A stretch of 64,000 bases of DNA from Polytrichum commune. Lineage: Eukaryota; Streptophyta; Polytrichopsida; Polytrichales; Polytrichaceae. The stretch lies in the NCBI GenBank assembly GCA_950295325.1, contig OX485808.1, positions 18,930,527-18,994,526 on the forward strand. Reading direction: 5' to 3'. The position numbers and the translations under genes were made by a program. The first letter of the stretch is position 1; each line of letters opens with the position of its first letter. Under the pieces are notes generated by a model that did no database searches, was not told the DNA's origin, and worked only from the letters and a program-made list of their open reading frames with translations. Shown here one piece after another: positions 5,874 through 57,930 of this stretch.

Positions 5874-6643
5874 GTTTACGGACGTGCGTCCGTAAACTTT
5901 ATGGACCATGTGTGGGTGAGAAAGAAGACCATCACACAATGTATATATGCGGAGTTTACGGACGCGCGTCCGTAAACTTTATGGACCTTGTGTGGGTGAG
6001 AAAGAAGACCCTCACACAATATATATGCGGAGTTTACGGACGCGCGTCCGTAACTTTTACATAATTGTAAATAGAATAAACTTTTCCTGAATAAAATATT
6101 TGCAAAGTTTACGGACGCGCGTCCGTAAACTTTGCAAAATAAGTAATAATCCACTGAATAATATATGTGAGTAGTTTACGGACCCACGTCCGTAACATCA
6201 AAAGAATTGTAAGTAGCATAAACTTTTCCTGAATAAAATATTTGAAAAGTTTACGGACGCGCGTCCGTAAACTAGGCAAAATAAGTAATAATTCACTGAA
6301 TAATATATGTCGAGGTTACGGACGCCCGTCCGTAACATGTAGAGAATTGTCAATAGTATAAAATGATTGAAAACTTTACAGATTCACGTTCCTAAACAAG
6401 GCATATATGACAACTAATTCTGTATATAATATATGTGCAGAGTTTACAGACGCACGTCCGTAAACTAGACATATATAAGTAAGCACATCATTTTCTATCA
6501 TATATGTACAGAGGTCACGGACGCACATATAATGTACGCGATTGAGCATATAATGTACGCGATTTGCGTATTCACTATAACATTCTTTAAAAGAAATAAT
6601 TGATAGAATATGCAAAACTTTACGAACGCGCGTTCGTAAAGTT
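5874..6643. repeat. Palindrome cluster A in the leader intron of gene 1a
   Basis: At least ten copies of a palindrome built from the half TTTACGGACGCG and its mirror, at about 5874, 5954, 6032, 6107, 6174, 6249, 6314, 6374, 6442 and 6616, spaced 60-80 bp apart except the last. A half copy lies near 6513. The copies at 5954-5977, 6107-6130 and 6249-6272 are perfect over 24 bp. The copy at 6616-6643 (GAACGCGCGTTC core) is perfect over 28 bp. Spacers are AT-rich and partly repeated (TAAGTAATAAT, CTGAATAATATATG). The cluster lies inside the predicted last leader intron, ending 55 bp before the start codon. The same palindrome recurs in both coding introns, one exon and the 3' flank of gene 1a. 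Confidence 0.9.
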
Positions 6644-6698
6644 AGATCTACATCCATTGACCATAATTCGAACATGTTGTGTATGTGACCATTTGCAG

Positions 6699-9600
6699 AT
6701 GGCATCTAAAAAGAGACACGCAATTGAGATGTTCGCAGAGGCTCTCATTCCTCCGCTGCCAGAAGATATCAAAGACATCAGCCCCAATGACCACTATAAG
6801 CCACAAGATGAAATTGTAGATAATTGGACAGTACTGGTAGAGAAGGACGAGAAAGAGATATTTGTGCTTAGATTTGCATATCAAATTAAGTCGGACATAG
6901 ATGAAGCCGAAAAGTGGATAAAGCTTAAATCCTGGACAATAGAGTGTGCAGTGGCCCAAGGGGATTATGTAGTTATTGACCTTGAGAAGAAAGAAGATCG
7001 GGTCACATTCATTTTGCACGAATCCTACCACCCCTTCAACAAAAATGAGTGTGAAAATGCTAGTACAGATGCGGCTTGCTTCAATCTCCAGACGGAGTTC
7101 CAAGACTATGCATGCAATGCACCTTGGACGGGTAAGCGGCTTGGACGACTCTTGAACAATGTTACAAGAGTGAATGGGGCGTTGCTAGAGGCCAGAAAGG
7201 GGAAGGAGAAGAAGAAACAAGTCGTTTCTGAACGACCCAAGCGTGTGCCCAAACCTGTGCTAGAAACCTCAAGGCCCTCGCCGAGTGGTGCATCAAGAGG
7301 GAGCAGACAGACGAGTAAACGCTCTCACTCGCAGATGGAGTCATCTGGGCTAACAGAGGGTCCAGATGTCAGCTCCACACTAACTGTCGCTCCTCTCCTA
7401 AAAAAGGGTCAACGCCCTGACGCCGAACTCTCCACAAAGATCTTCCAAGAATTTGATGAGAAGACAAAGGGTTGCTGGCCGCTGGGCAGGTATTTCACTT
7501 TCGACGTAGATGTCTACAAATGCCACAAGGGCACCGAGAGTATGAATACCAGAGCGAAAGAAGAAAGCGGGGTATGGTGGCAAATGAACAACATCATGAA
7601 CAACCCCAAATTTGATAGGCAGACCATTTGTGTCACACCAAAGGATCCTATTGTAGAAGTGAACGAGAAAAATTGGCCAATTCTCAAGAATGGAGAGTTT
7701 TACATAGTCGACGGCCAACATAGTGTGATGGCTGCAAAAGCTCTCCTTGAAGACGACGAGTGGAAAAGCCCATTGAAGGAAACAATCCGATATTGGAAGG
7801 CATTCGTCGTGCATTCCAAGGACTCGAACCAGCTCATAACAATATCTGCTTTCATGAACCAAGGAAATAAAGTTAGGCAGTTCGAGGCTTCATGGGCAGC
7901 CAACATCGTGGCTGGGAGGACCTTGTGGGTGGAGCACGAATGTCCTCCAAAAGAAAGAGACAATGCAGTCGTGAAGAACCCCAAATGGCAGGTATGTCAC
8001 TCATATATATTTACGGACGTACATCCGTAAACCTGCCCCTTCTCGTCCCACTGCTTCAATTCTTTGAATTTAATGTCTACTAATTTCGATGTACTGATTT
8101 CTTGCAATTCATGCCTCTTGCAGACATTCAGCAATGCCATCTTGACAAAGTTCTCGAGTATAGACATGAAGACAAGCGGCATGAAGACAGTGCATGAATT
8201 AAAGGGTGAACTCAAGCTCATCACTGCAACAGAGGAGACGTGGGCAATATGGTTGCGACTCTTCGATGCCCACAACAACGGGGACCTTGTGAATCCAAAT
8301 ACGGAGAACACGTACAAGAGCGATTCAAAGATTAAGGTACCACCAATCCTGCGAGAGTTCTTTCGTCCCCTCCAAGGATTGATGGACTCAGAGCTGTACA
8401 GGGCAGCAGAACACATCCTTCTAGAGACTCCTAGAAGGACTCTGCCCTATCCTAAAATCTTTCTGAAGAGGCCGAAGCATATGAAGCCCTCTACGTACCA
8501 CATTAAGGAATGGTGCGATTACAGGAAGAAGAAGACCATGGCTATAAGGGAGATAAGCAAATTGCTACCCTCCCACAACCTCATAAATAGCGATGGTGAG
8601 ATCGTGTGGGAGAATTGGAGGAAGCTGAAGGGTGAATACCACATCAATGGCGTGTCCATGCGAGCTTTGATAAGAGGGGCATCATCCTTCCTGGCCCAAC
8701 AATCCAGAAGAAACGAAAAAAAGGGATCCATTGACGAGAGGGAGGCAGGGTTGTACGTGAACTTTCTCGATAGGAAAAAGAAAGCGAAATTCGGAGGGTT
8801 TGCGAGATTCTGCACGGTCACAAAGGGCCTGAAGTTCGGCACATGGGACACCCATGCTTCAAGAGCCTCTGTGAGAGATGACCCTCGGGGTTGCCCTTTC
8901 GCCATTTTTGATTTTCGTGCGATTCCCGGAGCTTGGAAACAAGACGTTGCGGGAACACCCTTCTACGACCCCTTTTTAAAAGCATTCAAGAGCTATCGCT
9001 CGCCTGCCCTCTTCGAGCCTCATGTGTGGTTATGGATTGTAGAGCAAGAGAGGTCCACATCCGTTGTCCATCTATACACATCAACGATGGACCTCGGATA
9101 CGATCTGTACCACAGCACCTACATCCCGGCGAAGACAGAAGGGATCACTGTTATTCAAGAGGCAAGGGGGGTGAAGCAAGTGGGGGCCGTGCAACTTTAT
9201 TTCTTGACACGCAAGTCTTCACCAACTGGGCGACTGCCTATTAAACCTCACGAGGTGTTCAGGAAAGTCTACTCGTTGTCCCTACCACACCCCAAGGAGC
9301 TTGTGGAGGAGACTATACATGCTGTCTACCCGGCGTTCGAGCTCCGGATGGACTTTTATATTGGAGTCTTGAAGGCTTTGACTGTCATGAGTGAGACAGT
9401 TTACAACGTCTTCGGAGGCACCAAGTTTGTTTATGCAGCATTGGTGAGTATTTGTTTGTCCTTACATCCAGTTGTCTTTTGCATGTTTAATTTACGGACG
9501 CGCGTCCGTAAAACAAGCCTGTCTCAATTGCATTGTAATTTACGACCGTGCGTCCGTAAATTTGTCCAACATCTTATGATTGGTGATTTTACGAACGCAC

Positions 9601-11111
9601 GTCCGTATAATGTGTTGATATGTAGCCCCATTTATATGCCATCATCACAATTGTTCCTATCTAATTTTCTTGTTATGGTGCAGATGCTTGGGTTGCAGGT
9701 GAATTCTTTTGTGGAGGATACCGACTACGATGACGCCCATACTCACAGGGTTATTGCCTCCAAAATGGATATCCAGGACATCATGGACGTCCTTACTCCC
9801 CATCCTGTGGTGCCTCTTGCTTCTAGAGAAGAGGCAATGCCTGAGATGGAGACAGACCCTGAAGAGGACCATGATCCCAGTTCCCCCAGAGCGCAGCCAA
9901 CCACACAGGAGCCTTTACACGGGCTTGTTCGCGACCCTATTAATCCAAGTATTTTCCTGCTGGGAGCGGACGACATAGATCCGCAGGATACGCATGTGAA
10001 CGTCACTCCCATAAGGGCCCAACATACCCCTATTCTGTCACCTTTTGGGACTCCCACCTCTCGAGTTGGCTTTCCTTCCACTGCTGGTCCATCTCGTGCT
10101 GCAGGTGTTATGGCGGAGAAGGAGGTGGACCTTGCGGCAGAAGCCGGATGCACCGCTTCATCTGGAGGGGGATCTCAACATTCAGACCTACCCCCTATGG
10201 AGGGGAGGGACGTGCTGGAGTTGATATTGAGGCCCGATATCTCTCTATATCGCGAGAATCGACGAAAGAGGAACAAGACGCCATACAACGAATACCCTGA
10301 AGGCGCGGTCTTGGAGCTCTCCGATGAAGACGAGGATGAGATTAGGATTCACAATGCCATCTCTGCCTTGCCTACGGAACCTGGCAAGGTGAAGAAAGAG
10401 CCGATGTCGGTGTCCGAATTGGACGAAAAGATGGAGAAGCGAATGAAGGAAGAGCTTGACCAACGGCTTCGAGAAGCTAACGAGGAGCACGCCAAAAAGA
10501 TGGCCGCCATCCAAGCTGAGATGGAGCAAGCTAGGTTGGAGTCTGCTCGAAGGCACGCCGATCTCATGGCCCAAAATCAACAGTTCTTGGCCCAAAGCCA
10601 ACAATTTATGAGCATGATGCAGAGCTTGCAGGCAAGACCCCCTGTAGTCTATACAACTCCCGATGCCGTCATGTCTATGCCCCCCACTCTCATGCGGCCT
10701 CCGTCTAGTAGCCATGCGGTGTATATACCCGAGCATGCTTATCCAGCCCCCGCGTTGATTGCCCCGCCCTCTCCCTATGTTGCCCCCCCTCCAGCGCCCT
10801 CCTCTAATCCTACAGGAGTGGAGGAGATACCGGCACGTGACACGGCAGGCTCCGTCGAGAGTGACGTCAATGAAGGCAACGCCCCCGTCGGTGATGAAGA
10901 TGTACATATGCGGGGCAGCCAAGACTCAACAGATGAGGGCCATCCTTACGTGGACACTCAAGGGTCGCAAGCGGCTGGAGACACGTTGTTGGTGGTCGAA
11001 GATCTGGACAATTTTGCGGACGCGCGTCCGGAACCTTTGCCCTTGGTGGGGCCTGGTGAGGGAGGCACTGCTGGCGCGGACCTCGCCGCTGAAGAGGTAA
11101 TCCACCTTTGA
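6699..11111 (+). CDS. Gene 1a: ParB/DGQHR-like plus permuted N6/N4 DNA-methyltransferase-like protein with coiled-coil tail
   Basis: Three coding exons (6699-7991, 8124-9443, 9684-11111) join in phase 0 through GT-AG introns and give about 1,346 residues with no break. The start was chosen because the ATG follows a TTTGCAG acceptor. Residues about 165-190 are basic (KGKEKKKQVVSERPKRV), a likely nuclear signal. Residues about 265-430 match the ParB/DGQHR type (YIVDGQHSVMAAK near 337). Residues about 690-875 resemble a beta-class methyltransferase with motif order IV then I: FAIFDFRAIPGAW stands where D/N-PP-Y is expected, and YNVFGGTKFVYAA resembles the FxGxG SAM loop. The poor motif IV makes methyl transfer doubtful. 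The tail has an acidic SIM-like VLELSDEDEDE, a VKKEP SUMO-type site, a coiled coil (about 1110-1190) and a Pro-rich end. GTAATC at 11095 could instead be a donor to further exons. In bacteria and phages, ParB-methylase fusions act on DNA. A nuclear DNA-binding role here is inference. Confidence 0.75.
8010..8031. repeat. Palindrome A copy in intron 1 of gene 1a
   Basis: A TTTACGGACGT half followed by its slightly imperfect mirror (ACATCCGTAAA), 18 bp inside the first coding intron (7992-8123). It is the only structured element in this 132-bp intron. Confidence 0.85.
9491..9610. repeat. Three palindrome A copies in intron 2 of gene 1a
   Basis: A perfect 22-bp copy at 9491-9512 (TTTACGGACGC half plus mirror), a near-perfect copy at 9538-9561 (ATTTACGACCG half) and a degenerate copy at about 9587-9610 (TTTTACGAACGCACGTCCGT). 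All lie inside the 240-bp intron 9444-9683. Their centre spacing of about 48 bp is tighter than in the leader cluster. The intron happens to stay open in the exon frame, so retention would insert 80 codons. Confidence 0.85.
11014..11033. repeat. Palindrome A copy inside coding exon 3 of gene 1a
   Basis: The core CGGACGCGCGTCCG (14 bp, perfect) lies in frame and encodes part of FADARPEP near the C-terminus. The outer bases are changed relative to the intron copies (TTGCGGAC ... GTCCGGAA), but the arms still pair over 14 bp. Confidence 0.85.
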
Positions 11112-11123
11112 GCATGCCTCCCA

Positions 11124-11145
11124 CGTTACGGACGCGCGTCCGTAT
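11124..11145. repeat. Palindrome A copy just 3' of the gene 1a stop
   Basis: TTACGGACGCGCGTCCGTAT begins 15 bp after the TGA at 11109-11111. The arms are perfect over 18 bp. It lies in the presumed 3' UTR or downstream intergenic DNA. A further degenerate copy (TTTTCGGACTTCCATCCGTA) lies at about 12761-12780, between possible exons. Confidence 0.85.
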
Positions 11146-11483
11146 CTTCCTTGTCTACCTCCTTCGTGGCGTGTGTATATTATCGAGTTCAATCCTCGAC
11201 TTCGCCCAGCGGGTGGATACAATTTTGTTAGTATAGATTCCATTAACTTCAGCACAGATTTTTTGACAATGTATATTATTCACGAAATGTATATCATCAA
11301 TTACGTTAATACCAAATTTTGGAACTGGACGGTTCGGATTATTTTGGCCTTATATTTCTTTGTTGAGTTTATCCATGCTTGTCAATTGGTTTTCATGGGT
11401 AGTACCATTCACCTAGATAGTATTTTCCATCACAAGGTCCGTCGGAGATATGTCGCAACCCCGCTGAAAGACCAAGTCGGCCC

Positions 11484-12203
11484 ATGAGGAAACCGTTCAT
11501 AATATTTGACCTCAATGGGGTGCTTTGTCATTCCATGCATATCTCCAATAGTGCGTCGAAGGGTCCCTTCCGTAGTCCACAAAACATGGATTACGGCGGA
11601 CAGTTCGATACTCTCATTAACAAGAAGGTTGTACGGGCCCGGCCGGGGTTGAGGTGCTTCCTTCGTGATGTCCTTGGCTTGGCCCATGTCATCATCTGGA
11701 GCTCTATGCTCATGGACAACACGAAGGCCATCGTCAGTTTCCTTTTCCGAGAACTCGCAATGCCATGCTTGCTTCTCGGTCAAGAACACTGCGATGACCT
11801 TTATGACCGTAATGGCAACATTGTACCCAAGGTCGGAGGAGGCCGAGGGCCTCAATTCCTAAAGGTACTGAGGAAGAACCTTTGGGTGGGCGTCCCTATG
11901 TTGGAGGGGGTGCCCCACGGTTGTTGGCCCACCCCGGAGAACACGCTCCTCATTGACGACAGCCCGGCAAAGAGTATTCTCAATCCCCCGGGCAGTTGCA
12001 TATTCCCGGATCCTTGGGAGAGTGATAGAAATGACAACTTTCTAGAATATGAACTAGGACCCTACATTAGGAGGCTTGCCTATCACCCCGGAAGTGTCCC
12101 GGATTTTGTCCTCTCCAACCCCATTGGCAATAGGCCTCTAGGCCCAAGAGATGAGGAATTTAGGAGGTTGTACGGCTATGCCAAACTCAATAAATTAATA
12201 TGA
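11484..12203 (+). CDS. HAD-superfamily phosphatase of the FCP1/NIF (CTD-phosphatase-like) type
   Basis: A single-exon frame of 239 residues. Near the N-terminus FIIFDLNGVLCH matches HAD motif I in the plant FCP1-like form, with the usual second Asp of DxD replaced by Asn. VIIWSSMLMDNTKAI fits motif II with its small hydroxyl residue. NTLLIDDSPAKSI near residue 155 is the DD-containing motif IV. The family dephosphorylates protein Ser/Thr, classically the RNA polymerase II C-terminal domain. With Asn at the general acid/base position, activity may be altered, though plant homologues often carry DLNG. The ATG at 11484 is the first in frame, 372 bp after the gene 1a stop on the same strand. It could be a separate short gene or a downstream coding block of a longer transcript. 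It looks intact. Confidence 0.7.
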   Translation: MRKPFIIFDLNGVLCHSMHISNSASKGPFRSPQNMDYGGQFDTLINKKVVRARPGLRCFLRDVLGLAHVIIWSSMLMDNTKAIVSFLFRELAMPCLLLGQEHCDDLYDRNGNIVPKVGGGRGPQFLKVLRKNLWVGVPMLEGVPHGCWPTPENTLLIDDSPAKSILNPPGSCIFPDPWESDRNDNFLEYELGPYIRRLAYHPGSVPDFVLSNPIGNRPLGPRDEEFRRLYGYAKLNKLI

Positions 12204-12291
12204 GAACTGCTTTTTGGGTTTGTACTTGGACTCTCCATGTTTATATCTAACATTTCTCCCCGTATTTTGTAAATGTATTTTTGTGTCTTAG

Positions 12292-13138
12292 TTGCCTCAC
12301 CAAGCATCCCAAAGTCTCGTCCATGGCATGTGTGCATCTAAACCGGGCCCAAGCTCCCCTTCCATCGGTGTGACCGACATTTCAATGCCTTCACTATTTC
12401 AATTTTCAGCCGTCGATGCCGCCTCTGCTGTTGATTACTCCAAAGACTCGGGGTTTGAAGACGGAGTTGTCGATAGCCCTCCTCCAAAGGTTGCAAAACT
12501 CAATTACGCTCCATCTCCATCTCCATCTCCTCTCTGCAATGAGAAGCACGTTCGAAACCCGCGGTCGACCAGACGCCTTTGTATGGATGAACCCCAAATT
12601 GATGTCCCGGCGTTTACGAGCGTCCCTGTTGTGCTTGTGGCCCCCCTCGATGTCCCAGAAGCTCAAACCACCGCCCCGCACGCCAAGGTGCCCAATTATT
12701 GGCATTCTCAAGTTTTTCCTTCATGATTTCCGTGCATTAGTGCATTTCATATTCTTGGGTTTTTCGGACTTCCATCCGTAAACTTATACTAACCCACGTC
12801 ATTATATGTATTTATGGTCATTGTTTCAGACCCCAATACACATGAATGTGGGCCGTTCATCCTCGACTTCGTCATTGGATAGGCGAACACTGAAGACTGC
12901 TTCTTGCGAGTCTGATCATTGTTTGGCCCTACGGAAGAGTGAAAGACGTTCGGTTTCCCAAACGCATTCGTATTCCACTTATTCGGTAGGGGGTCGGGAA
13001 ATATGGGCAAATGGCACATATTCGGGGTCGACAAATAGACAAGGTTACAGCCGCGGACCCGAGATCTTTAGAGCCATGGAGGCCATGAAAGCAAAAGACC
13101 GTGAAACGGCAGTAAATGCTAATAATAGTATTGCATAA
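12292..13138 (+). CDS. Possible two-exon hypothetical gene
   Basis: Two open stretches, 12292-12726 and about 12829-13138. A CTTAG| acceptor-like sequence precedes the first near 12290. TTTCAG|ACCCCAATAC at about 12829 opens the second, and a TAA near 13136 closes it. The first stretch is Ser/Pro-rich (SPSPSPLC, VDSPPPKVAKL). The second ends EIFRAMEAMKAKDRE. I recognise no domain. No clean donor joins the two: CTCAA|GTTTTT near 12713 is weak. A degenerate palindrome A lies between them. This may be a 3' part of the phosphatase or gene 1a transcript, a small unknown gene, or decayed coding sequence. Confidence 0.25.
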
Positions 13139-13159
13139 ACAAAAGTACTGAGTCGTAAT

Positions 13160-13968
13160 CATGATCCGAACGTATAGGCTATATTAACATACATGTAGTT
13201 GTGGAATTATGTTTCTAGGACTTTCGCCTAATATTGGATATTCCACTTGCATTTTGTACTTCAACCCCTATTCAATAAATATGATATTGATTTTCCATAT
13301 GCAAATGTTTTCATATATCCCATTTTCTTATTTTTATATGTAGTTCCATGCATTTGAGTCTCTTATTTGTTTCTAAAATTGGGAACATAGCATATTTTTA
13401 GTGTTTTCCTTCCTACAAATGTGAAAGCCACGTCCTTAAATAGTCTCAAAATCAACAAAAAGTCTCCAATTACCGAATATAGTGTTTTAAGTGTGAAATC
13501 AATTGGGTTATAAGTTGATAAGGTTGTGATGAGGCCTGAATCTGATTTAAGTGTGAAGTGAGTTTGGGTTATATGTAGCTTAGGTTGTGATTAGGCATGA
13601 ATCTGATTTAAGTGTGAAGTTGTTAAGGCTCATATAAGGCCTGAAATCAAATCTCTTAATGTTAGCTTTATTCAAAATAGTGTGTCTCGGTCCCGAGACA
13701 CCCTTGAGAAGGGTATTAAGTGGGCTGACTTAAGTGTGAAATCAATTGGGTTATAAGTTGATAAGGTTGTGATTAGGCCTGAATCTGATTTAAGTGTGAA
13801 GTGAGTTTGGGTTATATGTTTCTTAGGTTGTAATTGGGCCTGAAATCAGATTTGATTTTGAATTTAGTTCAGGCTAAATGTTACTCAGGTTGTGATTAGG
13901 CGTCAGCTGAATTGTGCATATGCGCTTATTTGAATTCGGGGAGCTTCTATTATATTTTCTTTCCACAG
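13160..13968. repeat. Degenerate about 70-bp direct repeats with one CGG/CCG palindrome, upstream of gene 1b
   Basis: From about 13485 to 13900, units containing ATTTAAGTGTGAAGT, GGGTTATA and GGTTGTGATTAGGC recur five or six times at roughly 67-80 bp spacing. At 13682-13701 a palindrome with arms GTGTCTCGG and CCGAGACAC flanks a TC centre. No coding sequence is visible, so the missing N-terminal part of gene 1b is not found here. 13160-13480 holds nothing recognisable beyond AT-rich DNA. Confidence 0.65.
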
Positions 13969-25306: not shown

Positions 25307-25351
25307 TATAGTAGGCCACCAATAAAAAGCTGTCAATATTTTGTGTAATGT

Positions 25352-37506: not shown

Positions 37507-38482
37507 TGTCGCAACCCTTGCTAGCCCCCCCTTGACCATCTTGCCAATTTTCAATTCTAGCAAAGGTTACGAGTGGCTAACCCTTCGCATACCGCCATGC
37601 TAATGGTTAGCTCCTCTTACCCCGGACCAATAGTTCATAGGAGGGAACCAACCCTCCTACTTTGCTTTTGGGACTCACCCCTTAATCGGTAACCCATTTC
37701 CCCAATGTGGACTTCCATCCATGGAAGTCCAATCCTATGTTGATCATCGCGTTGCCGGAGCAACACTACAACAACCCGAAGCATACTAGGCAACTATGGC
37801 CTCACAATAGGCCAAAGCCCATGGAGGCCTTGCCGTTCGGCCTCGGGTGGGTGAGGCCACACCACCTCACCCATATAAGCCTCTAGGACTCTACGCGGGG
37901 CCCCTACCCCACCGTCAACCAACCTCTTGTCTCTCTACCAAGAGTTGGGGCCAAGTGGACATTTTCCCTTAGCCGCTGGGCCTAGAAGCCCCCCAGCAGC
38001 TTCAGACCATCATAACTTCCTTTTATGATGTCTGATTCCAGCAACCAACCACTCCATCTTCATCTACGTTTCACGTAGATGCCGATGGACTCCTCACTTG
38101 CCCCATTCGGGCAAGTATTGAGGAAGTTATGCCTGTTTGAACCTTGGCAGTCCCGGGAATCACTCCCAGGCACTGCTGTACCAGGGCGCTGTCCCGGGAC
38201 AGCGCCCCACTCAAATGGCCATAACTCCTAGCTCACACCTCCGATTGAGGTGTTCTTGGGCTTTCTAGAATCACCACGCCATGAGCTACGCATAACTCAT
38301 GGCCTTACCCTTGTGCCTCCTAGTCTTTGTGGGTGGGAGGCGTTCCCAACGCCCGGGGCCCTCACCCACACTAGGATCACTTGGGCCCTCTCACCAACGG
38401 CGCCACAAGTCCCGGGTGTCACTCCGGGGTCCCCCTTGTGCCCATGGTGTTTCGGGCACTCCTCATGGAGAGGTGCGCGACA
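37507..38482 (-). mobile_element. Solo LTR D of the chromovirus family (TSD GGTAT)
   Basis: 976 bp from TGTCGCAACCC to GTGCGCGACA with exact GGTAT at 37502-37506 and 38483-38487. It lies in the knuckle region of the Tat-like fossil. By eye it matches the right LTR of the nested element (34216-35189) much better than the left one. Confidence 0.95.
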
Positions 38483-41498: not shown

Positions 41499-41859
41499 TG
41501 GAACTTTCTCCCGTTGTGTGCCACAATTTGTAAAGTAAGGACTCCTTAATCTCCACTTGATAGAATTTCTCTTGAGTTTCGGTCTCCTTGAGTATCGCCT
41601 TGCAAAAAGTGATGAAGTTTAATTCATTCAACGCATCACGTATCTCCCGGTCGTCTTCCGTATGTCTCTTCTCATTTGACATTCTTACTAGTAAGACACT
41701 TTATCTCCGAATCGTGTTAAGTTTCATTTGGTAGATATGACGTTGCGGTTGTCCGCTTTTCTTGGCGTAATTCTCCACGTGCTTAGTTAACGCATTCGCC
41801 AAGAACTCCGCTTTCGTCCCTTTCACACTTAAATCACCGAGACACATTAATGGCAAGAA

Positions 41860-41877
41860 TCCCCAGCATGGTCGCCA
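41860..41877 (-). other. Probable primer-binding site of the Tat-like fossil
   Basis: On the minus strand TGGCGACCATGCTGGGGA starts three bases inside the inferred LTR edge at 41881 (TGATGCACCC). It resembles the TGGCGCC...GGGGA primer sites common in plant Ty3 elements. The tRNA was not identified. Confidence 0.55.
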
Positions 41878-41880
41878 AAA

Positions 41881-45771: not shown

Positions 45772-48700
45772 ACAAACAAACTAGTTGAAGCTAACGGCCA
45801 ACTAGTTGCACCAAACCATAAACACAAGCTAAGAAAATTAATTTGCAAAATCTGGTCCTACATTTCTAAACCAAGGCCCTCTCGGTTCCGAGAGGCTCAA
45901 ATTCTGGATCACAAACAAACTAGTTGAACCACACAACAAATTAGTTGTACCTATCCATACCCACAAGCCAAGAACCTTAATGTGCAAAATCTGGTCCTAC
46001 ATTTCTACAAGAAGACCCTCTCGGTTCCGAGAGGGTCAAATTCTGGATCACAAACAAACTAGTTGAACCTCACAATTAACTAGTTGGACCTATCCATACC
46101 CATAAGCTAAGAACCTTAATTGGCAAAATCTGGTCCTACATTTCCTACAAGAAGACCCTCTCGGTTCCGAGCGGGTCAAATTCTGGACCACAAACAAACT
46201 ACTTGAACCACACAACAAACTAGTTGTACCTATCCATACCCACAAGCTAAGAACCTTAATGTGCAAAATCTGGTCCTAAATTTCTACAAGAACGCCCTCT
46301 CGGTTCCGAGAGGGTCAAATTCTGGATCACAAACAAACTAGTTGAACCTCACAATTAACTAGTTGGACCTATCCATACCCATAAGCTAAGAACCTTAATT
46401 TGCAAAATCTGGTCCTACATTTCTACAAGAAGACCTTTTCGGTTCCGAGAGGGTCAAATTCTGGACCACAAACAAACTAGTTGAACCTCACAACTAACTA
46501 GTTGTACATATCCATACCCACAAGCTAAGAACCTTAATGTGCAAAATCTGGTCCTACATTTCTACAAGAAGACCCTCTCGGTTCCGAGAGGGTCAAATTC
46601 TGGACCACAAACAAACTAGTTGAACCTCACAGTTAACTAGTTGGACCTATCCATACCCACAAGCTAAGAACCTTAATTTGCAAAATATGGTCCTACATTT
46701 CTAAACCAAGGCCCTCTCGGTTCCGAGAGGGTCAAATTCTGGACCACAAACAAACTAGTTGAACCTCACAATTAACTAGTTGGACCTATCCATACCCATA
46801 AGCTAAGAACCTTAATTTGCAAAATCTGGTCCTACATTTCTACAAGAAGACCCTCTCGGTTCCGAGAGGGTCAAATTCTGGATCACAAACAAACTAGTTG
46901 AACCTCACAATTAACTAGTTGGACCTATCCATACCCATAAGCTAAGAACCTTAATTTGCAAAATTTGGTCCTACATTTCTAAACCAAGGCCCTCTCGGTT
47001 CCGAGAGGGTCAAATTCTGAACCACAAACAAACTAGTTGAACCTCACAATTAACTAGTTGGACCTATCCATACCCATAAGCTAAGAACCTTAATTTGCAA
47101 AATCTGGTCCTACATTTCTACAAGAAGACCTTTTCGGTTCCGAGAGGGTCAAATTCTGGACCACAAACAAACTAGTTGAACCTCACAACTAACTAGTTGT
47201 ACATATCCATACCCACAAGCTAAGAACCATAATGTGCAAAATCTGGTCCTACATTTCTACAAGAAGACCCTCTCGGTTCCGAGAGGGTCAAATTCTGGAC
47301 CACAAACAAACTAGTTGAACCTCACAGTTAACTAGTTGGACCTATCCATACCCACAAGCTAAGAACCTTAATTTGCAAAATTTGGTCCTACATTTCTAAA
47401 CCAAGGCCCTCTCGGTTCCGAGAGGGTCAAATTCTGGACCACAAACAAACTAGTTGAACCTCACAATTAACTAGTTGGACCTATCCATACCCATAAGCTA
47501 AGAACCTTAATTTGCAAAATCTGGTCCTACATTTCTACAAGAAGACCCTCTCGGTTCCGAGAGGGTCAAATTCTGGACCACAAACAAACTAGTTGAACCT
47601 CACAACTAACTAGTTGTACCTATCCATACCCACAAGCGAAGAACCTTAATTTGCAAAATCTGGTCATACATTTCTAAACCAAGGCCCTCTCGGTTCCGAG
47701 AGGGTCAAATTCTGGATCACAAACAAACTAGTTGAACCTCACAACTAACTAGTTGTACCTATCCATACCCACAAGCTAAGAACCTTAATTTGCAAAATCT
47801 GGTCCTACATTTCTAAACCAAGGCCCTCTCGGTTCCGAGAGGGTGAAATTCTGGATCACAAACAAACTAATTGAACCTCACAATTAACTAGTTGTACCTA
47901 TCCATACCCATAAGCTAAGAACCTTAATTTGCAAAATCTGGTCCTACGTTTCTAAACCAAGGCCCTCTCGGTTCCGAGAGGGTCAAATTCTGGATCACAA
48001 ACAAACTAGTTGAACCTCACAATTAACTAGTTGTACCTATCCATACCCACAAGCTAAGAACCTTAATTTGCAAAATTTGGTCCTACATTTCTAAACCAAG
48101 GCCCTCTCGGTTCCGAGAGGGTCAAATTCTGAACCACAAACAAACTAGTTGAACCTCACAATTAACTAGTTGGACCTATCCATACCCATAAGCTAAGAAA
48201 CTTAATTTGCAAAATCTGGTCCTACATTTCTACAAGAAGACCTTTTCGGTTCCGAGAGGGTCAAATTCTGGACCACAAACAAACTACTTGAACCTCACAA
48301 CTAACTAGTTGTACATATCCATACCCACAAGCTAAGAACCATAATGTGCAAAATCTGGTCCTACATTTCTACAAGAAGACCCTCTCGGTTCCGAGAGGGT
48401 CAAATTCTGGACCACAAACAAACTAGTTGAACCTCACAGTTAACTAGTTGGACCTATCCATACCCACAAGCTAAGAACCTTAATTTGCAAAATTTGGTCC
48501 TACATTTCTAAACCAAGGCCCTCTCGGTTCCGAGCGGGTCAAATTCTGGACCACAAACAAACTAGTTGAACCTCACAATTAACTAGTTGGACCTATCCAT
48601 ACCCATAAGCTAAGAACCTTAATTTGCAAAATCTGGTCCTACATTTCTACAAGAAGACCCTCTCGGTTCCGAGAGGGTCAAATTCTGGATCACAAACAAA

Positions 48701-51700
48701 CTAGTTGAACCTCACAACTAACTAGTTGTACCTATCCATACCCACAAGCGAAGAACCTTAATTTGCGAAATCTGGTCATACATTTCTAAACCAAGGCCCT
48801 CTCGGTTCCGAGAGGGTCAAATTCTGGATCACAAACAAACTAGTTGAACCTCACAACTAACTAGTTGTACCTATCCATACCCACAAGCTAAGAACCTTAA
48901 TTTGCAAAATCTGGTCCTACATTTCTAAACCAAGGCCCTCTCGGTTCCGAGAGGGTGAAATTCTGGATCACAAACAAACTAATTGAACCTCACAATTAAC
49001 TAGTTGTACCTATCCATACCCATAAGCTAAGAACCTTAATTTGCAAAATCTGGTCCTACGTTTCTAAACCAAGGCCCTCTCGGTTCCGAGAGGGTCAAAT
49101 TCTGGATCACAAACAAACTAGTTGAACCTCACAATTAACTAGTTGGACCTATCCATACCCATAAGCTAAGAACCTTAATTTGCAAAATGTGGTCCTACGT
49201 TTCTAAACCAAGGCCCTCTCGGTTCCGAGAGGGTCAAATTCTGGATCACAAACAAACTAGTTGAACCTCACAACTAACTAGTTGTACCTATCCATACCCA
49301 CAAGCTAAGAACCTTAATGTGCAAAATCTGGTCCTACATTTCTAAACCAAGGCCCTCTCGGTTCCGAGAGGGTCAAATTCTGGACCACAAACAAACTAGT
49401 TGAACCTCACAGTTAACTAGTTGGACCTATCCATACCCACAAGCTAAGAACCTTAATTTGCAAAATCTGGTCCTACATTTCTAAACCAAGGCCCTCTCGG
49501 TTCCGAGAGGGTCAAATTCTGGACCACAAACAAACTAGTTTAACCTCACAACTAACTAGTTGTACCTATCCATACCCACAAGCTAAGAACCTTAATGTGC
49601 AAAATCTGGTCTTACATTTCTACAAGAAGACCCTCTCGGTTCCGAGAGGGTCAAATTCTGGATCACAAACAAACTAGTTGAACCTCACAACTAACTAGTT
49701 GTACCTATCCATACCCACAAGCTAAGAACCTTAATGTGCAAAATCTGGTCCTACATTTCTAAACCAAGGCCCTCTCGGTTCCGAGAGGGTCAAATTCTGG
49801 ACCACAAACAAACTAGTTGAACCTCACAGTTAACTAGTTGTACCTATCCATACCCACAAGCTAAGAACCTTAATTTGCAAAATCTAGTCGTACATTTCTA
49901 AACCAAGGCCCTCTCGGTTCCAAGAGGGTCAAATTTTGGATCACAAACAAACTAGTTGAACCTCACAATTAACTAGTTGGACCTATCCATACCCATAAGC
50001 TAAGAACCTTAATTTGCAAAATGTGGTCCTACGTTTCTAAACCAAGGCCCTCTCGGTTCCGAGAGGGTCAAATTCTGGATCACAAACAAACTAGTTGAAC
50101 CTCACAACTAACTAGTTGTACCTATCCATACCCACAAGCTAAGAACCTTAATGTGCAAAATCTGGTCCTACATTTCTAAACCAAGGCCCTCTCGGTTCCG
50201 AGAGGGTCAAATTCTGGACCACAAACAAACTAGTTGAACCTCACAGTTAACTAGTTGGACCTATCCATACCCACAAGCTAAGAACCTTAATTTGCAAAAT
50301 CTGGTCCTACATTTCTAAACCAAGGCCCTCTCGGTTCCGAGAGGGTCAAATTCTGGACCACAAACAAACTAGTTTAACCTCACAACTAACTAGTTGTACC
50401 TATCCATACCCACAAGCTAAGAACCTTAATGTGCAAAATCTGGTCTTACATTTCTACAAGAAGACCCTCTCGGTTCCGAGAGGGTCAAATTCTGGATCAC
50501 AAACAAACTAGTTGAACCTCACAACTAACTAGTTGTACCTATCCATACCCACAAGCTAAGAACCTTAATGTGCAAAATCTGGTCCTACATTTCTAAACCA
50601 AGGCCCTCTCGGTTCCGAGAGGGTCAAATTCTGGACCACAAACAAACTAGTTGAACCTCACAGTTAACTAGTTGTACCTATCCATACCCACAAGCTAAGA
50701 ACCTTAATTTGCAAAATCTAGTCGTACATTTCTAAACCAAGGCCCTCTCGGTTCCAAGAGGGTCAAATTTTGGATCACAAACAAACTAGTTGAACCTCAC
50801 AATTAACTAGTTGGACCTATCCATACCCATAAGCTAAGAACCTTAATTTGCAAAATGTGGTCCTACGTTTCTAAACCAAGGCCCTCTCGGTTCCGAGAGG
50901 GTCAAATTCTGGATCACAAACAAACTAGTTGAACCTCACAACTAACTAGTTGTACCTATCCATACCCACAAGCTAAGAACCTTAATGTGCAAAATCTGGT
51001 CCTACATTTCTAAACCAAGGCCCTCTCGGTTCCGAGAGGGTCAAATTCTGGACCACAAACAAACTAGTTGAACCTCACAGTTAACTAGTTGGACCTATCC
51101 ATACCCACAAGCTAAGAACCTTAATTTGCAAAATCTGGTCCTACATTTCTAAACCAAGGCCCTCTCGGTTCCGAGAGGGTCAAATTCTGGACCACAAACA
51201 AACTAGTTTAACCTCACAACTAACTAGTTGTACCTATCCATACCCACAAGCTAAGAACCTTAATGTGCAAAATCTGGTCTTACATTTCTACAAGAAGACC
51301 CTCTCGGTTCCGAGAGGGTCAAATTCTGGATCACAAACAAACTAGTTGAACCTCACAACTAACTAGTTGTACCTATCCATACCCACAAGCTAAGAACCTT
51401 AATGTGCAAAATCTGGTCCTACATTTCTAAACCAAGGCCCTCTCGGTTCCGAGAGGGTCAAATTCTGGACCACAAACAAACTAGTTGAACCTCACAGTTA
51501 ACTAGTTGTACCTATCCATACCCACAAGCTAAGAACCTTAATTTGCAAAATCTAGTCGTACATTTCTAAACCAAGGCCCTCTCGGTTCCAAGAGGGTCAA
51601 ATTCTGGATCACAAACAAACTAGTTGAACCTCACAATTAACTAGTTGGACCTATCCATACCCATAAGCTAAGAACCTTAATGTGCAAAATCTGGTCCTAC

Positions 51701-53600
51701 ATTTCTAAACCAAGGCCCTGTCGGTTCCGAGAGGGTCAAATTCTGGACCACAAACAAACTAGTTGAACCTCACAGTTAACTAGTTGGACCTATCCATACC
51801 CACAAGCTAAGAACCTTAATTTGCAAAATCTGGTCCTACATTTCTAAACCAAGGCCCTCTCGGTTCCGAGAGGGTCAAATTCTGGATCACAAACAAACTA
51901 GTTGAACCTCACAACTAACTAGTTGTACCTATCCATACCCACAAGCTAAGAACCTTAATGTGCAAAATCTGGTCCTACATTTCTAAACCAAGGCCCTCTC
52001 GGTTCCGAGAGGGTCAAATTCTGGACCACAAACAAACTAGTTGAACCTCACAGTTAACTAGTTGGACCTATCCATACCCACAAGCTAAGAACCTTAATTT
52101 GCAAAATCTGGTCCTACATTTCTTAACCAAGGCCCTCTCGGTTCCGAGAGGGTCAAATTCTGGACCACAAACAAACTAGTTTAACCTCACAACTAACTAG
52201 TTGTACCTATCCATACCCACAAGCTAAGAACCTTAATGTGCAAAATCTGGTCTTACATTTCTACAAGAAGACCCTCTCGGTTCCGAGAGGGTCAAATTCT
52301 GGATCACAAACAAACTAGTTGAACCTCACAACTAACTAGTTGTACCTATCCATACCCACAACCTAAGAACCTTAATGTGCAAAATCTGGTCCTACATTTC
52401 TACAATAAGACCCTCTCGGTTCCGAGAGGGTCAAATTTTGGACCACAAACAAACTAGTTGAACCTGGAAACCCATACAACCTAACAACATTGTTGCGCAG
52501 AACCTGGTCATATATTTCCATCCCAAGACCCTCTCGGTTCCGAGAGGGTGAATGTCTAGCCCCAAACTTAACCATGTGAACACAAGAACACTAGTTGGAC
52601 CTATCCACACATCGAAGCTGGAAACAATATAGTGCAAAATCTGGTCCCATATTTCTAATCTAGGACCCTCTCCGTTCCGAGAGGGTGAAATTCCAGTACA
52701 TATGCAAATTCTGGTCCTATATTACTCCTTGATGTTGAAAATCTCTTGCTTCTTTACTACACATTCATCCTCTCGGCTCCAAGAGGGTGATATTCTGGAA
52801 CACAAACAACTACTTGGACCTAACGACGAACAATCTAACAACCTTAATGTCCAACTTAAGGTTCCGAGAGTGTGAAATTGTAGACAACAAACAAACTAGT
52901 TTAATGTTGACGAACAAGTTGAACCCATCCACTCATACAAGCTTCCAAACTTATGGTGCATAATCTGGTGCTACATTTCTATCCTAAGACCCTCTCGGTT
53001 CCGAGAGGGTAAAATTCTGGACCACAGCCAAAATAGTTGAACCAAACGACCAACTTCATGAACCCAGCCGAACATACAAGCTTTAAACATTATAGTCGCA
53101 CCTTTGCCCACCTTTGTATCCTTAGACCCTCTCGGAACCGAGAGGGTGAAATTGTAGACCACATACAAACTATTTGAACCTAACGACCAACTAGTTGCAC
53201 ATTTCCACACATACAAGCTAACAACTTCAATGTGCAAATTTGGTCCTATAGAAGTAAACCAAGACCCTCTTGGTTCCGAGAGGGTCAAATTCTGGACCAC
53301 AAACAAATCAGTTCAACCTCACGACCAAGTAGTTGGACCTATCCATACCCAAAAGCTAAGAACCTTAATGTGTGAAATCTGATCCTACATTTCTACAAGA
53401 AGACCCTCTCGGTGCCGAGAGGGTCTTATTATGGACCACAAACAAACTAGTTGAACCAAACGACCAACTAGTTGCACATATGCACACCCACAAGCTTTAA
53501 GCAATTTGTCCCATATTTCTATCTTAAGACCCTCTCGGTTCCGAGAGGGTGAAATGCTAACCCACAAACACACTAGTTGAACCCATGTGCACAAACAATC
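45772..53600. repeat. About 139-bp tandem array (about 56 units) filling an intron of gene 2
   Basis: Head-to-tail units contain AACAAACTAGTTGAACC, TAACTAGTTG, CCATACCCA, AAGCTAAGAACC and AAAATCTGGTCCTACATTTC, then the palindrome with arms GACCCTCTCGG around a TT centre. Nearly every unit carries one intact palindrome plus two AACTAGTT octamers. Units are very alike from about 45.9 to 52.4 kb and degenerate from 52.4 to 53.6 kb. Blocks of several units recur (a marker AAAATGTGGTCCTACG near 49195, 50019 and 50853), so there is higher-order structure of about 0.83 kb and recent segmental duplication. The array lies inside the intron 53663-45715. Confidence 0.95.
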
Positions 53601-55479
53601 CTCTCCTTCCTTGCATCACTAAGAGCCTCTCAACAAATATAACAGTGGATGACAATGGAGTACCTGTGCCCAATAAGAAGCTTTGTTAAGCCAGTCATCG
53701 AGGACTTTCTCGCGAAGAGGAAGAGAAGAGGGGAACTTGTTTTTGGTTTTGACATCGGTGGGGGAATTCCACCACCGAAGCCACCTTGCCTTAAAGGAAG
53801 CATCCACATGTGTTGTTGCCACCTTTTGGAGTTTCTCAATAGTCATATCCGTGACAAGGAAGGTGGAGAAATGATGGTCAATCTGATAAATAAAATAGTA
53901 TTATGTGAGAAAATGCACGAATACAAAAAAATTGAAGCAAAAACAAAATTGAAGATGTGAAGTGATTACCTCTTGGAAAAAGTCATCGCCGTTGTCCTTG
54001 TGTGCTACGGAGATGAATTTTTCAAAGCTCCGAGATCTAATACTTTTGACCAATCTTTCCTGTGCTTTGGTCATAACATCCCAAATCCCAGTAGCAGTTC
54101 TACGAGCCTCGGGAGTGGCCTCGCGGTATAACCGTGCAGCGGTGTCCGCGGCATTGGATATCTCTCTCTACAATAAACAAACTTGTGTGTAAGAATACAC
54201 GCATAGAACATGACAAAGGAAACCAAAAGGATCGAGGAGCATAAATACCTTGTACAAGAACTTGACGAAGACATCCAATGTGAGCGGATACCAAGTAGGA
54301 TTCTTCTCCATCTTGGACTCGCACATCTTGTAGTCGTCAACATAAATGAGGTCCTTGAAATCCTCAAGCTTCATTTTTCCAAATGTCCGAATCTGAAGCA
54401 ATTTGGCTGGGAGGTTGTCCTTGACATGATCATGCTCCGTGGACCTAAAATACCAAGTAATGAGAATCATAGTAGCACACATAAGAAACAAATAAAAGAA
54501 ACAAGGAAAATAAAGCTCATCTTACCAATTGATGTCATTCATGGCATTCAAGAAGACTGCGGTGGAATTCCTTGGATCCACTACAATACAGTCAACTGAT
54601 ATATGCCAATCTTTGTCAAGCAAGTGATGCTTATTTATGTGCCTCCACCAAGCTGTCAAACGATGGTTGCCCTCCCATACGTAGAACATCTTTCCAGCAA
54701 GGTGTTCAAGGTCAGGGTCATTTTGGAGCATGGCGTCGAATTGGCCTCTTGCCATAATTTACTCCAAGAAGCTTGAATGTCATCGGAGACATGAAGTACC
54801 TCATTGAGGTTGTTGTAGGGAGATACATACAAGGCCCGGTCACCGTCACGGTAACCCATGACGAACTCATTTTCCAAGCGAGCGACATCAACCTCGTTGA
54901 TGGGACGAACAAGTGGAAGACATCGCAAGCGGCACAATGGAATACAAAACCGCGACTTCAGAAGAGGCTTCATTCGAACCCAGTGAATCACAGCATTGGA
55001 GTCTTCTTTTTGCGATCTCCGAATCAAGAGCTCAGTCTCTTCTAGATTGGACTCATCAAGAGGACGCAAAGAGTCGGTTCCCACAGGTGCATCATTCTAC
55101 AAGGGTAGCCACAAAAACATTTTGTAGTGGCCAAAAAATTCAATACACGACCAACCCGAGGTATAATCAAAGAGAAAAAGGGAATTCAGTAAATGACGCA
55201 TATATTCTCAAAATAGATGAAGCTTTGCCCTATTCATACCACATGAACCTCCACTTCAACATTATGTTCCTCCATTGAGGGCTCCTCCGATTGCATGACG
55301 TCCATGGATTGCAATCCCTGTACAATATCATGACACAATGAGTTTCTGAACCTATCTGAATTTCTCCAGTCCCCATACACTCTAATCCGACCTATATACT
55401 ACTTATTCCAACCTATATTCACATACAGGCCTTCAGCATTCAAGATTAAACTCATGTTCAAGATCTGGTCATATATTCC

Positions 55480-57930
55480 CCCACTTAGACCCCATCGGAA
55501 CCGACAGTCCAACCTATATTCATACTACTCCAACCTATATTCACAAACAATCCTTCCACATTCAAGATTAAAATCTGGTCCTACATTCCACATGTAAGAC
55601 CCTCTCGGTTCCGAGAGGGTCCATTCCAGTCCACTAGTCCAACCTTTATTCCTACTTCTCCGAACTATATTCACATACAAGCCTTACACATTCAAGACTA
55701 AAATTTGGTCATACATTCCCCCTCTAAGACCCTCTCGGAACCGAGAGGGTCGAGTCCAGTCCACATACACACTACTCCAAGCTATATTCACAAGCAAGCA
55801 TTCAACATTCAAAATTGCAATCTGGTCCTACACTCCTCTACTAAGACCCTCTCGGAACCGAGAGGATCCATTCCAGTCCACATTCATACTAGTCCAACCT
55901 ATATGCCAACAAACACTATGCATATTCACATACAAGACTTCCACATTCAAGACTAGAATCTGGTCCTACATTTCACATGTAAGACCCTCTCGGTTCCGAG
56001 AGGGTCCATTCCAGTCCACTAGTCCAACCTCTATTCATACTACTCCAACCTATATGCCCAAACAAAATCTGGTCACACATTCATCCATTCCAGGCTACAT
56101 ACTTAATACTAGAACCTATATTCCCAAACCCTATGCATATTCACATTCCCCCTCTAAGACCCTCTCGGAACCGAGAGGATCCATTCCAGTCCACATACAT
56201 ACTAGTCAAACCTATATTCCAACAAGTCCAGCCTATATTCACAAACAAGCCTTCAACATTGAACATTAGAATCTGGTCCTACATTCAACATGTAACATCC
56301 TCTCGGTTCCGAGAGGGTGCATTCAAGTCCACAAATCCAGCCTATATTCATACTACTCCAACCTATATGCCCAAACAATCCTTCCACATTCAATATCAAA
56401 ATCTGGTCACACATTCTTCAACCTAGACCCTCTCGGAACCGAGAGGGTCCATTCCAGTCCACATACTTAATACTAGAACCTATATGTCCAAACCCTATGC
56501 ATATTCACATACAAGACTTCCACATTCAAGACTAAAATCTGGTCCTACATTTCACATGTAAGACCCTCTCGGTTCCGAGAGGGTCCATTCCAGTCCACAT
56601 ACACACTTCTCCAACCTATATTCACACTACTCCAACCTGCATTCACAAACAAGCCTTCCACACTCTTATTCAAAATCTGGTCATACATTCTTCAAGGAAT
56701 ACCCTCTCGGACCCTAGAGGGTCCATTCCAGTCCCCAAGTCCTACCTATTTTCAAACTACTCCAACCTATATGCCCAAACAATCCTTCCACATTCAAGAT
56801 CAAAATCTGGTCATACATTCTTCAACCTATATTCATACTACTCCAACCTATATTCACAAACAATCCTTCCACATTCAAGATTAAAATCTGGTCCTACATT
56901 CCACATCTAAGACACATTCTTCAACCTAGACCCTCTCGGAACCGAGAGGGTCCATTCCAGTCCACATACTTAATACTAGAACCTATATGCCCAAACCCTA
57001 TGCATATTATCATGTAAGCCTCCCACATTCAAGACTAAAATCTGGTCCTACATATCACATGTAAGACCCTCTCGGAACCGAAAGGGTCCATTCCAGTCCA
57101 CCGACATACTAGTCCACCCTATATACCAACAAACCCTATGCATATTCATACACAAGCATTCCACATTCATGTTCACAATCTGGTCCTACATTTCTCATGT
57201 AAGACCCTCTCGGTTCCATTCCAGTCCACTAGTCCAACCTTTATTCATACTACTTCAACCTATATGCCCAAACAATCCTTCCACATTCAATATCAAATTC
57301 TGGTCACACATTCTTCAACCTATACCCTCTCCGAACCGTGAGGGTCCATTCGAGTCCACATACACACTTCTCCAACCTATATTCACACTACTCCAACCTG
57401 TATTCACAAACAATCCTTCCACACTCATGTTCAAAATCTGGTCATACATTCTTCAAGGAATACCCTCTCGGACCCTAGAGGGTCCATTCCAGTCCACATA
57501 CTCCCTAGTCCAACCTATAAACCCTAACCAGCTTTCAACTTGCCCATGCATAATCCATTCCCCGACTAAGACCCTCCCGTTTCCGAGCGGGTCCATTGCA
57601 GTCCACATACCAACTAGTCAAAGCTATATTCGCCAACAAGCCTCCAACTTTCGCCCGAGAGGGTCCACTCCAGTCCACATACAAAGTATTCCCGCCTTTA
57701 AACCCTAATATGCTTTCAACCTCCCCATGCAAATTGTTTTCCTTCATTCCTCAACTGAGACCCTCTCGGAGCCGAGAGGGTCCACTCCATTCCAATTACA
57801 AAGTATTCCACCCTCCATACACAAACTAGCTTTCAACCTTCAAGTTCAAAATCGTGTCCTGCGTTCCTACACTAGGACCCTCTCGGAACCGAGATGGTCC
57901 TCTCCATTACACATACAGAGTTTTCCAACC
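55480..57930. repeat. Degenerate relatives of the 139-bp repeat in intron 1 of gene 2
   Basis: About 17 palindromes of the same GACCCTCTCGG type, in both orientations (TT or AA centre). The spacers differ from the main array but share AAAATCTGGTCCTACATT (CCATTCCAGTCCACATAC and CAACCTATATTCACA are new). The units are more diverged and irregularly spaced (about 70-260 bp). They lie in the intron 58040-55318. Short frames across this region are made by the repeats and are not genes. Confidence 0.85.

What the first reader, a model, noticed from the sequence alone, without database searches (positions are those of the whole stretch)
5874..57930. Each ParB-methyltransferase-like locus carries its own amplified palindrome
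Seen in the sequence: gene 1a carries about 18 TTTACGGACGCG-type palindromes in its leader intron, both coding introns, one exon and the 3' flank. Gene 2 carries about 70 GACCCTCTCGG-TT-mirror palindromes in introns 1 and 6. Gene 1b has one TGTCTCGG-TC-mirror upstream and GGCCTCGGATCCGAGGCC repeats in its 3' flank. The arms differ between loci but all have a CGG...CCG core. Known: bacterial ParB proteins bind palindromic parS sites and many methyltransferases use palindromic targets. Inference: the proteins may recognise the palindromes at their own loci (autoregulation, spreading, marking or selfish maintenance), with protein and site diverging together. Alternatives: hairpin or small-RNA sources, or mutational amplification without function.
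Basis: partly seen in the sequence, partly recalled or inferred. Interest (0 to 1): 0.88.

Follow-up and report, generated by a model that had tools for sequence, protein, structure and literature searches.

The report
Plant transposons with private palindromic addresses
These genes turn out to sit in large jumping genes of a moss-like plant, and several jumping-gene lineages carry many copies of a palindromic DNA word of their own, probably an address by which a protein they encode recognises them.

Summary
In detail: 17 palindromes at gene 1a, 72 at gene 2, almost none in shuffles. Gene 1a lies in a TIR transposon of about 17 kb (4-bp target duplication in 4 of 4 copies read at both ends) with a divergent DUF7869 gene (proposed transposase, unproven) and a phosphatase gene. 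Five palindromes occur in two DUF7869-type lineages and in a second group (gene 2, gene 1b); four have 1,310-3,138 genome sites (control 0), the gene 1a half-site 1,181+1,157 (control 5+5). In held sequence each stays with its lineage, except at gene 1b, which has two kinds. A prediction held: 2 of 2 leaders chosen from protein hits carried the expected palindrome. Between diverged copies arms are 91-100% identical in 13 of 14 comparisons, flanks 64-82%. Best reading: a convergent analogue of VANC/VANDAL anti-silencing. Binding and function are inferred; 'ParB' is weak by profile, though gene 1b matches the DNA methylase family. Palindrome-to-gene linkage is well supported only for gene 1a; for gamma and epsilon it was not seen in capped lists, and 3 of 12 gene-2-like loci lack a palindrome.

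The parts
1..13486 (+). Right 13.5 kb of an alpha transposon copy; its left end lies at about C6:18925096, 5.4 kb before the window
   Evidence: Left boundary shared with copies C, E and F, right boundary with C, D, E, F and G; TIR and 4-bp target duplication TTAA on both sides
13459..13486 (-). Right terminal inverted repeat AACACTATATTCGGTAATTGGAGACTTT
   Evidence: Exact match in the window, 0 expected; 117+117 exact matches in the genome, control 0
5875..6640 (.). Ten alpha palindromes (0-5 mismatches) in the leader of gene 1a
6699..11111 (+). Gene 1a, exons 6699-7991, 8124-9443, 9684-11111; 1346 aa, ParB-like motif FYIVDGQHSVMAAKAL, methylase-like C-terminal part by eye only
   Evidence: Open joined frame; weak profile hits of its 73%-identical relative P0001: DUF6551 E 0.03, PHROG ParB-like E 0.096; 67 scored exon-2 copies in the genome
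8010..8031 (.). Alpha palindrome in intron 1
9491..9609 (.). Three alpha palindromes in intron 2
11013..11034 (.). Alpha palindrome in coding exon 3; core also found in copies D, E, F and G, not in the piece of copy C
11125..11146 (.). Alpha palindrome 3' of gene 1a
12761..12782 (.). Degenerate alpha palindrome (3 mismatches) further 3'
11421..12200 (+). NIF/SCP-type phosphatase gene carried by the transposon, also in copy F (L028:2016-2795)
   Evidence: PF03031 E 1.8e-12 and 4.4e-13
13679..13704 (.). Beta palindrome TGTCTCGG-TC-CCGAGACA in the repeat that hosts the alpha insertion; three more lie left of the insertion in L031
17145..18630 (+). Gene 1b methylase-like part, exons 17145-17492, 17656-17929, 18038-18242, 18339-18630
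   Evidence: PF01555 N6_N4_Mtase E 2.4e-8, 34.7 bits against cut-off 26.7; 223 matches in the genome
19664..19810 (.). Two delta-type palindromes AGGCCTCGG-NN-CCGAGGCCT, 3' of gene 1b
44025..58412 (-). Gene 2, limits approximate: ParB-like part in frames at 54525-55096 (motif VWEGNHRLTAWW; frame changes at about 54757); methylase-like end at about 44270-44680 by eye only
   Evidence: Frames; 280 matches to the ParB-like part, listed rows outside the own locus 64-97% identical
45771..52465 (.). Tandem array, 48 units of 139 bp, with gamma palindromes, intron of gene 2
52471..53700 (.). Eight gamma palindromes
55400..57940 (.). Sixteen gamma palindromes in the leader intron of gene 2; repeat units only about 69-83% alike in most rows
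58493..63783 (+). Gene divergent from gene 2, frames 58493-59485 and 62500-63783, with a further frame in L032:3-1319; looks like a Mutator-type transposase by eye only (recalled motifs)
   Evidence: 282 relatives, none of the 120 listed with a Pfam domain; no Pfam match above cut-off

Best explanation
The palindromes are family-specific address sites of DNA transposons. SHOWN: gene 1a belongs to a TIR-bounded transposon of about 17 kb. In two DUF7869-type lineages (alpha, epsilon) a ParB/methylase-like gene and a DUF7869 gene stand head to head, and one palindrome type lies both near the DUF7869 gene and in the ParB-like gene's leader. A second group (gene 2 and relatives, gene 1b) uses three further palindromes (gamma, delta, beta) in leader, introns and flanks. 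Arms are conserved; flanks, and in most families the centre, much less. INFERRED: the ParB/methylase-like protein binds the palindromes as a dimer on the DNA of its own family and, by coating or spreading, keeps element chromatin open or unmethylated and controls the promoters, as the unrelated VANC proteins do for VANDAL elements. The methylase-like part may be a non-catalytic DNA-binding scaffold. A new lineage would arise when protein and site change together, the inner core staying (CTCGG-NN-CCGAG in gamma, delta, beta; G(A/T)CG-NN-CG(T/A)C in alpha, epsilon) while the outer arms change.
For: Element: TIR 117+117 exact against 0 control; 4-bp duplications ATGG, CACT, TTTA, TTAA in 4 of 4 copies read at both ends; 25 of 32 gene 1a copies have an inward-facing exact TIR within 20 kb, mostly 11-14 kb on one side or about 4 kb on the other, chance about 0.01 each. 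Layout: 10 of 49 epsilon ParB-like loci have a divergent epsilon DUF7869 gene within 20 kb, 0.1 expected. Site counts and controls. Specificity: exact motif counts over 38 held loci and 6 window parts keep each motif to its family, except around gene 1b, in the nested locus L031 and at the far end of L022. Prediction met: 2 of 2 leaders fetched from protein hits hold the epsilon palindrome. Constraint: arm against flank identity; information concentrated in the arms, and one-sided changes outnumbering paired ones, 163:48, 142:14, 30:2, 12:4, 8:6. The same kinds of place (introns of element genes including the regulator, upstream of the transposase gene) hold VANC21 motifs in VANDAL21 (PMC5735166, parts 1-2 of 6 read).
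Against: No binding, methylation or expression data. ParB-like assignment weak; the fold model is useless (mean pLDDT 37.8). Profile comparison found no homology between the gene 1a alignment and the gene 2 or gene 1b proteins, so the two groups may be unrelated proteins. 3 of 12 gene-2-like loci have no palindrome in the 2.9 kb read, 2 of 12 only imperfect ones. Gene 1b carries beta and delta types; a 93%-identical methylase copy at C1:2.49 Mb has delta sites but no exact beta site nearby. 0 of 4 gamma and 0 of 9 epsilon clusters at the start of C1 coincide with a listed gene hit, though the lists are capped. 7 of 32 gene 1a copies have no exact inward TIR. Sites were chosen by likeness to the consensus, which raises arm conservation; paired changes are not absent there and were not tested against expectation. 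One of 14 diverged comparisons (3 sites) gave arms 72% against flanks 64%. The window's 139-bp array is plain tandem duplication.
Confidence: 0.55

Rival explanations
1. The palindromes are read by another element-encoded or host protein (the DUF7869 protein as transposase, or a host factor); the ParB/methylase-like gene only travels with them.
For: Alpha and epsilon palindromes also stand upstream of the DUF7869 gene; DUF7869 proteins are lineage-specific too.
Against: In alpha the palindromes are internal, in leader and introns of the ParB-like gene, not at the TIR ends where transposase sites usually lie. The gene-2 group has palindromes at the ParB-like gene beside a different putative transposase without a DUF7869 match.
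Confidence: 0.2
2. Mutational amplification without function: tandem duplication by slippage or unequal exchange happens to spread palindromes.
For: The 139-bp array with 48 units, 94% matches; regular spacing at many genomic arrays.
Against: Flanks carry little shared information while arms do (sites chosen by consensus); arms resist change between diverged copies; sites recur at unrelated places including a coding exon; each lineage has its own site.
Confidence: 0.12
3. Hairpin or small-RNA source: transcribed palindromes fold and feed RNA silencing.
For: Sites lie in leaders and introns that are probably transcribed; some paired changes occur in the arms (48 in alpha).
Against: Arms meet with 0-2 bases between them, and changes in the arms are more often one-sided than paired.
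Confidence: 0.08
4. A parS-like partition or episome-maintenance site.
For: ParB-like motif and palindromic sites at the own gene.
Against: Alpha sites are in chromosomal TIR transposons; a ParA-like gene was not sought.
Confidence: 0.05

Closest known systems
VANDAL transposons and VANC anti-silencing proteins of Arabidopsis (PMC5735166, parts 1-2 of 6 read; PMC10398659, abstract and outline)
   Same: Transposon lineages with a regulatory protein beside the transposase; short motifs repeated in non-coding parts, in introns and upstream of the transposase; motifs amplify by tandem repetition and differ between related lineages.
   Different: Protein unrelated by Pfam; sites are palindromes of about 18-24 bp, not 9-base motifs arrayed in one direction; alpha and epsilon use a DUF7869 gene, not a Mutator transposase (that VANDALs are Mutator elements is recalled); no methylation data here.
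Bacterial ParB-parS and ParB-methylase fusions (PMC5512222, passages)
   Same: ParB-like motif, methylase-like part, palindromic sites at the own gene (parS palindromes recalled).
   Different: Plant transposon genes with introns; ParB assignment weak; long arrays of sites; no partition context.
TnpA of En/Spm (recalled, no call)
   Same: Transposon-encoded protein that binds repeated short motifs of its element and counteracts methylation.
   Different: Those motifs are subterminal and serve transposition.

Membership tests
TIR DNA transposon (alpha element) | Terminal inverted repeats | tested here: met
TIR DNA transposon (alpha element) | Target-site duplication | tested here: met
   4 bp in 4 of 4 copies read at both ends
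TIR DNA transposon (alpha element) | Catalytic DDE/RNase H transposase | tested here: inconclusive
   [not shown]
VANDAL/VANC | Family-specific motif repeated in non-coding parts of the own element | tested here: met
   shown for alpha and epsilon, with exceptions in the gene-2 group
VANDAL/VANC | VANC domains DUF1985/DUF287 | tested here: not met
   No such Pfam match in P0001, P0002 or frames holding gene 1a exons
VANDAL/VANC | Mutator-type transposase | tested here: not met
   For alpha: DUF7869 instead. For the gene 2 neighbour: likeness by eye only, no Pfam match
VANDAL/VANC | Protein binds the motif and demethylates the element | not testable with these tools
   needs ChIP or DAP-seq and methylation data
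ParB/parS | ParB/Srx domain | tested here: inconclusive
   For P0001: E 0.096 PHROG ParB-like, E 0.03 DUF6551; none for P0002 or the gene 2 piece; fold model too poor
ParB/parS | Partner ParA | not tested
   not sought
N6/N4 DNA methylase | Profile match | tested here: met
   Gene 1b, PF01555 above cut-off; no such match for the gene 1a relatives P0001 and P0002
N6/N4 DNA methylase | Catalytic (D/N/S)PP(Y/F/W) motif (recalled) | tested here: not met
   Gene 1b reads DLILADLPEGLP at that place, judged by eye

The most novel reading that the evidence does not exclude
Several transposon lineages of one plant genome (five palindromes seen) each evolved a private palindromic address read by their own ParB/methylase-derived protein, a eukaryotic, selfish counterpart of ParB-parS that spreads from the sites to keep the whole element open, with new lineages arising by joint change of protein and site.
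Probability: 0.25. Interest if true: 0.92.

Novelty: new variant of a known kind. Interest (0 to 1): 0.8.

Why it matters
It would be another, independently evolved case of transposons that recognise themselves by a sequence-specific protein and an amplified private motif, with several diverged protein-site pairs in one genome. That makes protein-DNA specificity change directly testable, and would offer long, palindromic, orthogonal DNA addresses for aiming chromatin effectors.

Tried and rejected
Rejected: alpha palindromes spread at random (the 8 clusters among the first 100 of 2338 listed places lie in alpha elements); long terminal repeats as source (the LTR-like repeats at 20.2-38.5 kb hold three other palindromes, once per copy); an RNA stem as main constraint.
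Full report
WHAT IS THERE. The palindromes are real and far beyond chance: 17 of the gene 1a kind, 72 of the gene 2 kind, one beta and two delta sites around gene 1b. The genome held for the window has 408 Mb in 64 contigs. Named relatives of its DUF7869 protein in the listing are from Ceratodon and Physcomitrium, so the host is probably a moss or near relative (inference).

GENE 1a IS PART OF A TRANSPOSON (ALPHA). I took 8 palindrome clusters on C1 from a DNA pattern alone (first 100 of 2338 places). 6 of 8 held gene 1a in the first fetch. With flanks, all 8 lie in one repeat family of 17.35 kb in copy F: B is a left-half fragment, and H and G are taken as the two parts of one element split by an insertion. 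The ends carry inverted repeats starting AACACTATATTCG(T/G)TAATTGGAGACTTT, with 4-bp duplications ATGG, CACT, TTTA and TTAA in the 4 copies read at both ends. The repeat occurs 117+117 times exactly, control 0. Of the 67 scored gene 1a exon-2 copies, 32 lie where the capped TIR list reaches (C1, C2, C3 below 48.5 Mb); 25 of these 32 have an inward-facing exact TIR within 20 kb, mostly 11-14 kb on one side or about 4 kb on the other; 7 of 32 have none. The element carries, from the left, a DUF7869 gene on the minus strand (PF25273 E 4.5e-40), palindromes, a stretch of several kb, palindromes in the leader, gene 1a, and a NIF phosphatase gene. The window copy starts 5.4 kb before the window, ends at 13486, and is nested in a repeat that bears beta palindromes on both sides.

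A SECOND DUF7869 LINEAGE (EPSILON). Beside copy F stands a related DUF7869 gene, 67-71% identical in DNA over the aligned pieces, with ten copies of a different palindrome, GGTTTGGGTCG-NN-CGACCCAAACC, just upstream. The alpha layout predicts a ParB-like gene on the far side. The search with P0002, a 33%-identical relative of gene 1a, placed one at C1:36936638-36939487 on the minus strand, as predicted. 10 of 49 P0002-like loci have a divergent epsilon DUF7869 gene within 20 kb, 4.6-15.6 kb away, 0.1 expected; one more has such a gene near but not divergent (49 of 1905 and 88 of 1688 candidates had been scored).

THE GENE 2 GROUP (GAMMA, DELTA, BETA). The ParB-like part of gene 2 has 280 matches, the listed ones outside its own locus 64-97% identical (122 of 2497 candidates scored). 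I read 2.9 kb upstream of that exon in 12 representatives. 7 of 12 carry a family palindrome: GACCCTCTCGG or CACCCTCTCGG type at 80-89% protein identity (L033, L034, L036 with only two sites, L044), GAGGCCTCGG type at 70-71% (L038, L039, L043). 2 of 12 (75-76%) have imperfect CCCTCTCG variants. 3 of 12 (82, 81 and 64%) have none. So where present the palindrome sorts with protein identity: the six CCCTCTCG loci are at 75% or above, the three GGCCTCGG loci at 71% or below. L039 and L043 carry a further palindrome, CCCACGGGTG-NN-CACCCGTGGG. Gene 1b matches PF01555 and bears beta sites upstream and delta sites 3', so one locus can have two kinds. For this group I did not determine element ends.

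SPECIFICITY. Genome counts, the control being the pattern read backwards: alpha half-site 1181 forward and 1157 reverse against 5 and 5; palindromic sites gamma 2064 against 0, beta 1310 against 0, delta 2137 against 0, epsilon 3138 against 0. Exact motif counts over 38 held loci (L009-L046) and 6 window parts show each motif only with its own family, apart from the gene 1b region, the nested locus L031 (alpha and beta) and L022 (alpha sites of its element and one beta site at its far end).

CONSTRAINT. Of 14 comparisons between alpha copies whose flanks are 64-82% identical, 13 have arms 91-100% identical; one, of 3 sites, has 72% against 64%. In closer copies arms and flanks differ little. 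Some of these comparisons may pair different units of one array. Around the sites information is concentrated in the arms (mostly 1.0-2.0 bits, outermost positions less; flanks mostly 0-0.7) and drops at the centre in gamma, epsilon and beta. One-sided changes outnumber paired changes in each of the five families, 163:48, 142:14, 30:2, 12:4 and, barely, 8:6 (sites with at most 6 mismatches, identical stretches counted once; not tested against expectation). The core of the coding-exon palindrome is also found in copies D, E, F and G, but not in the piece of copy C. This fits a dimer-bound site better than an RNA stem or passive duplication, although the 139-bp array of the window (48 units, 94% matches) is itself plain tandem duplication.

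RESULTS AGAINST. Direction palindrome to gene, from the first hundred listed places on C1: delta 3 of 5 clusters lie within about 3 kb of a listed ParB-like or methylase hit; beta 2 of 5 lie within 5 kb of a listed methylase; gamma 0 of 4 (2 arrays, 2 single sites); epsilon 0 of 9 below 4 Mb. Those hit lists were capped by the tool, so this is untested rather than negative, but it limits the claim outside alpha. The ParB label rests on the GQHS / GNHR motif by eye and two weak profile hits for one relative. No homology between the alpha and gene 2 or gene 1b proteins was found. The fold attempt failed. A transposase fold for DUF7869 was not confirmed.

MECHANISM. Anatomy (sites in the regulator's leader and introns and before the transposase-like gene), lineage-private sites and dyad symmetry point to an element-encoded dimer that marks its own family. 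VANC proteins of Arabidopsis do this with unrelated domains: VANC21 binds motifs in introns and other non-coding regions of VANDAL21, motifs amplify by tandem repetition and differ between related lineages, and VANC21 expression causes loss of methylation (PMC5735166, parts 1-2 of 6; PMC10398659, abstract). Bacterial ParB-methylase fusions exist (PMC5512222, passages) and are a plausible source. I put the anti-silencing or self-marking reading at 0.55. That gene 1a is part of a TIR transposon, and that its palindromes belong to that transposon, I hold as near certain.

Noticed in passing
window 11421-12200; L028:2016-2795: A NIF/SCP-type phosphatase gene is carried inside the alpha transposon and is also present in copy F: possible captured host gene or element-encoded effector on transcription.
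   Followed up: partly
window 20252-21224, 28130-29101, 34216-35189, 37507-38482: Four copies of a repeat of about 970 bp (LTR-like) around Gypsy-type frames (reverse transcriptase, H2C2 and integrase, gag); each holds the same three palindromes once, unrelated to the arrays.
   Followed up: partly
L039, L043: A second palindrome, CCCACGGGTG-NN-CACCCGTGGG, mixed with the delta palindromes: possibly a site for another protein or an emerging new address.
   Followed up: no
G000:C4:41.5-58 Mb: Many listed gene-2-like and gene-1b-like copies crowd on this part of C4: perhaps a sex-linked or pericentromeric stretch.
   Followed up: no
G000:C1:21542854-21550412: A 7.6 kb TIR-bounded alpha derivative with no alpha half-site listed there: a likely non-autonomous form without palindromes.
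   Followed up: no
[not shown]
   Followed up: partly
window 58493-64000 and L032:1-1319: The gene divergent from gene 2 has 282 relatives, none of the 120 listed with a Pfam domain: an unclassified, probably transposase-like family.
   Followed up: partly
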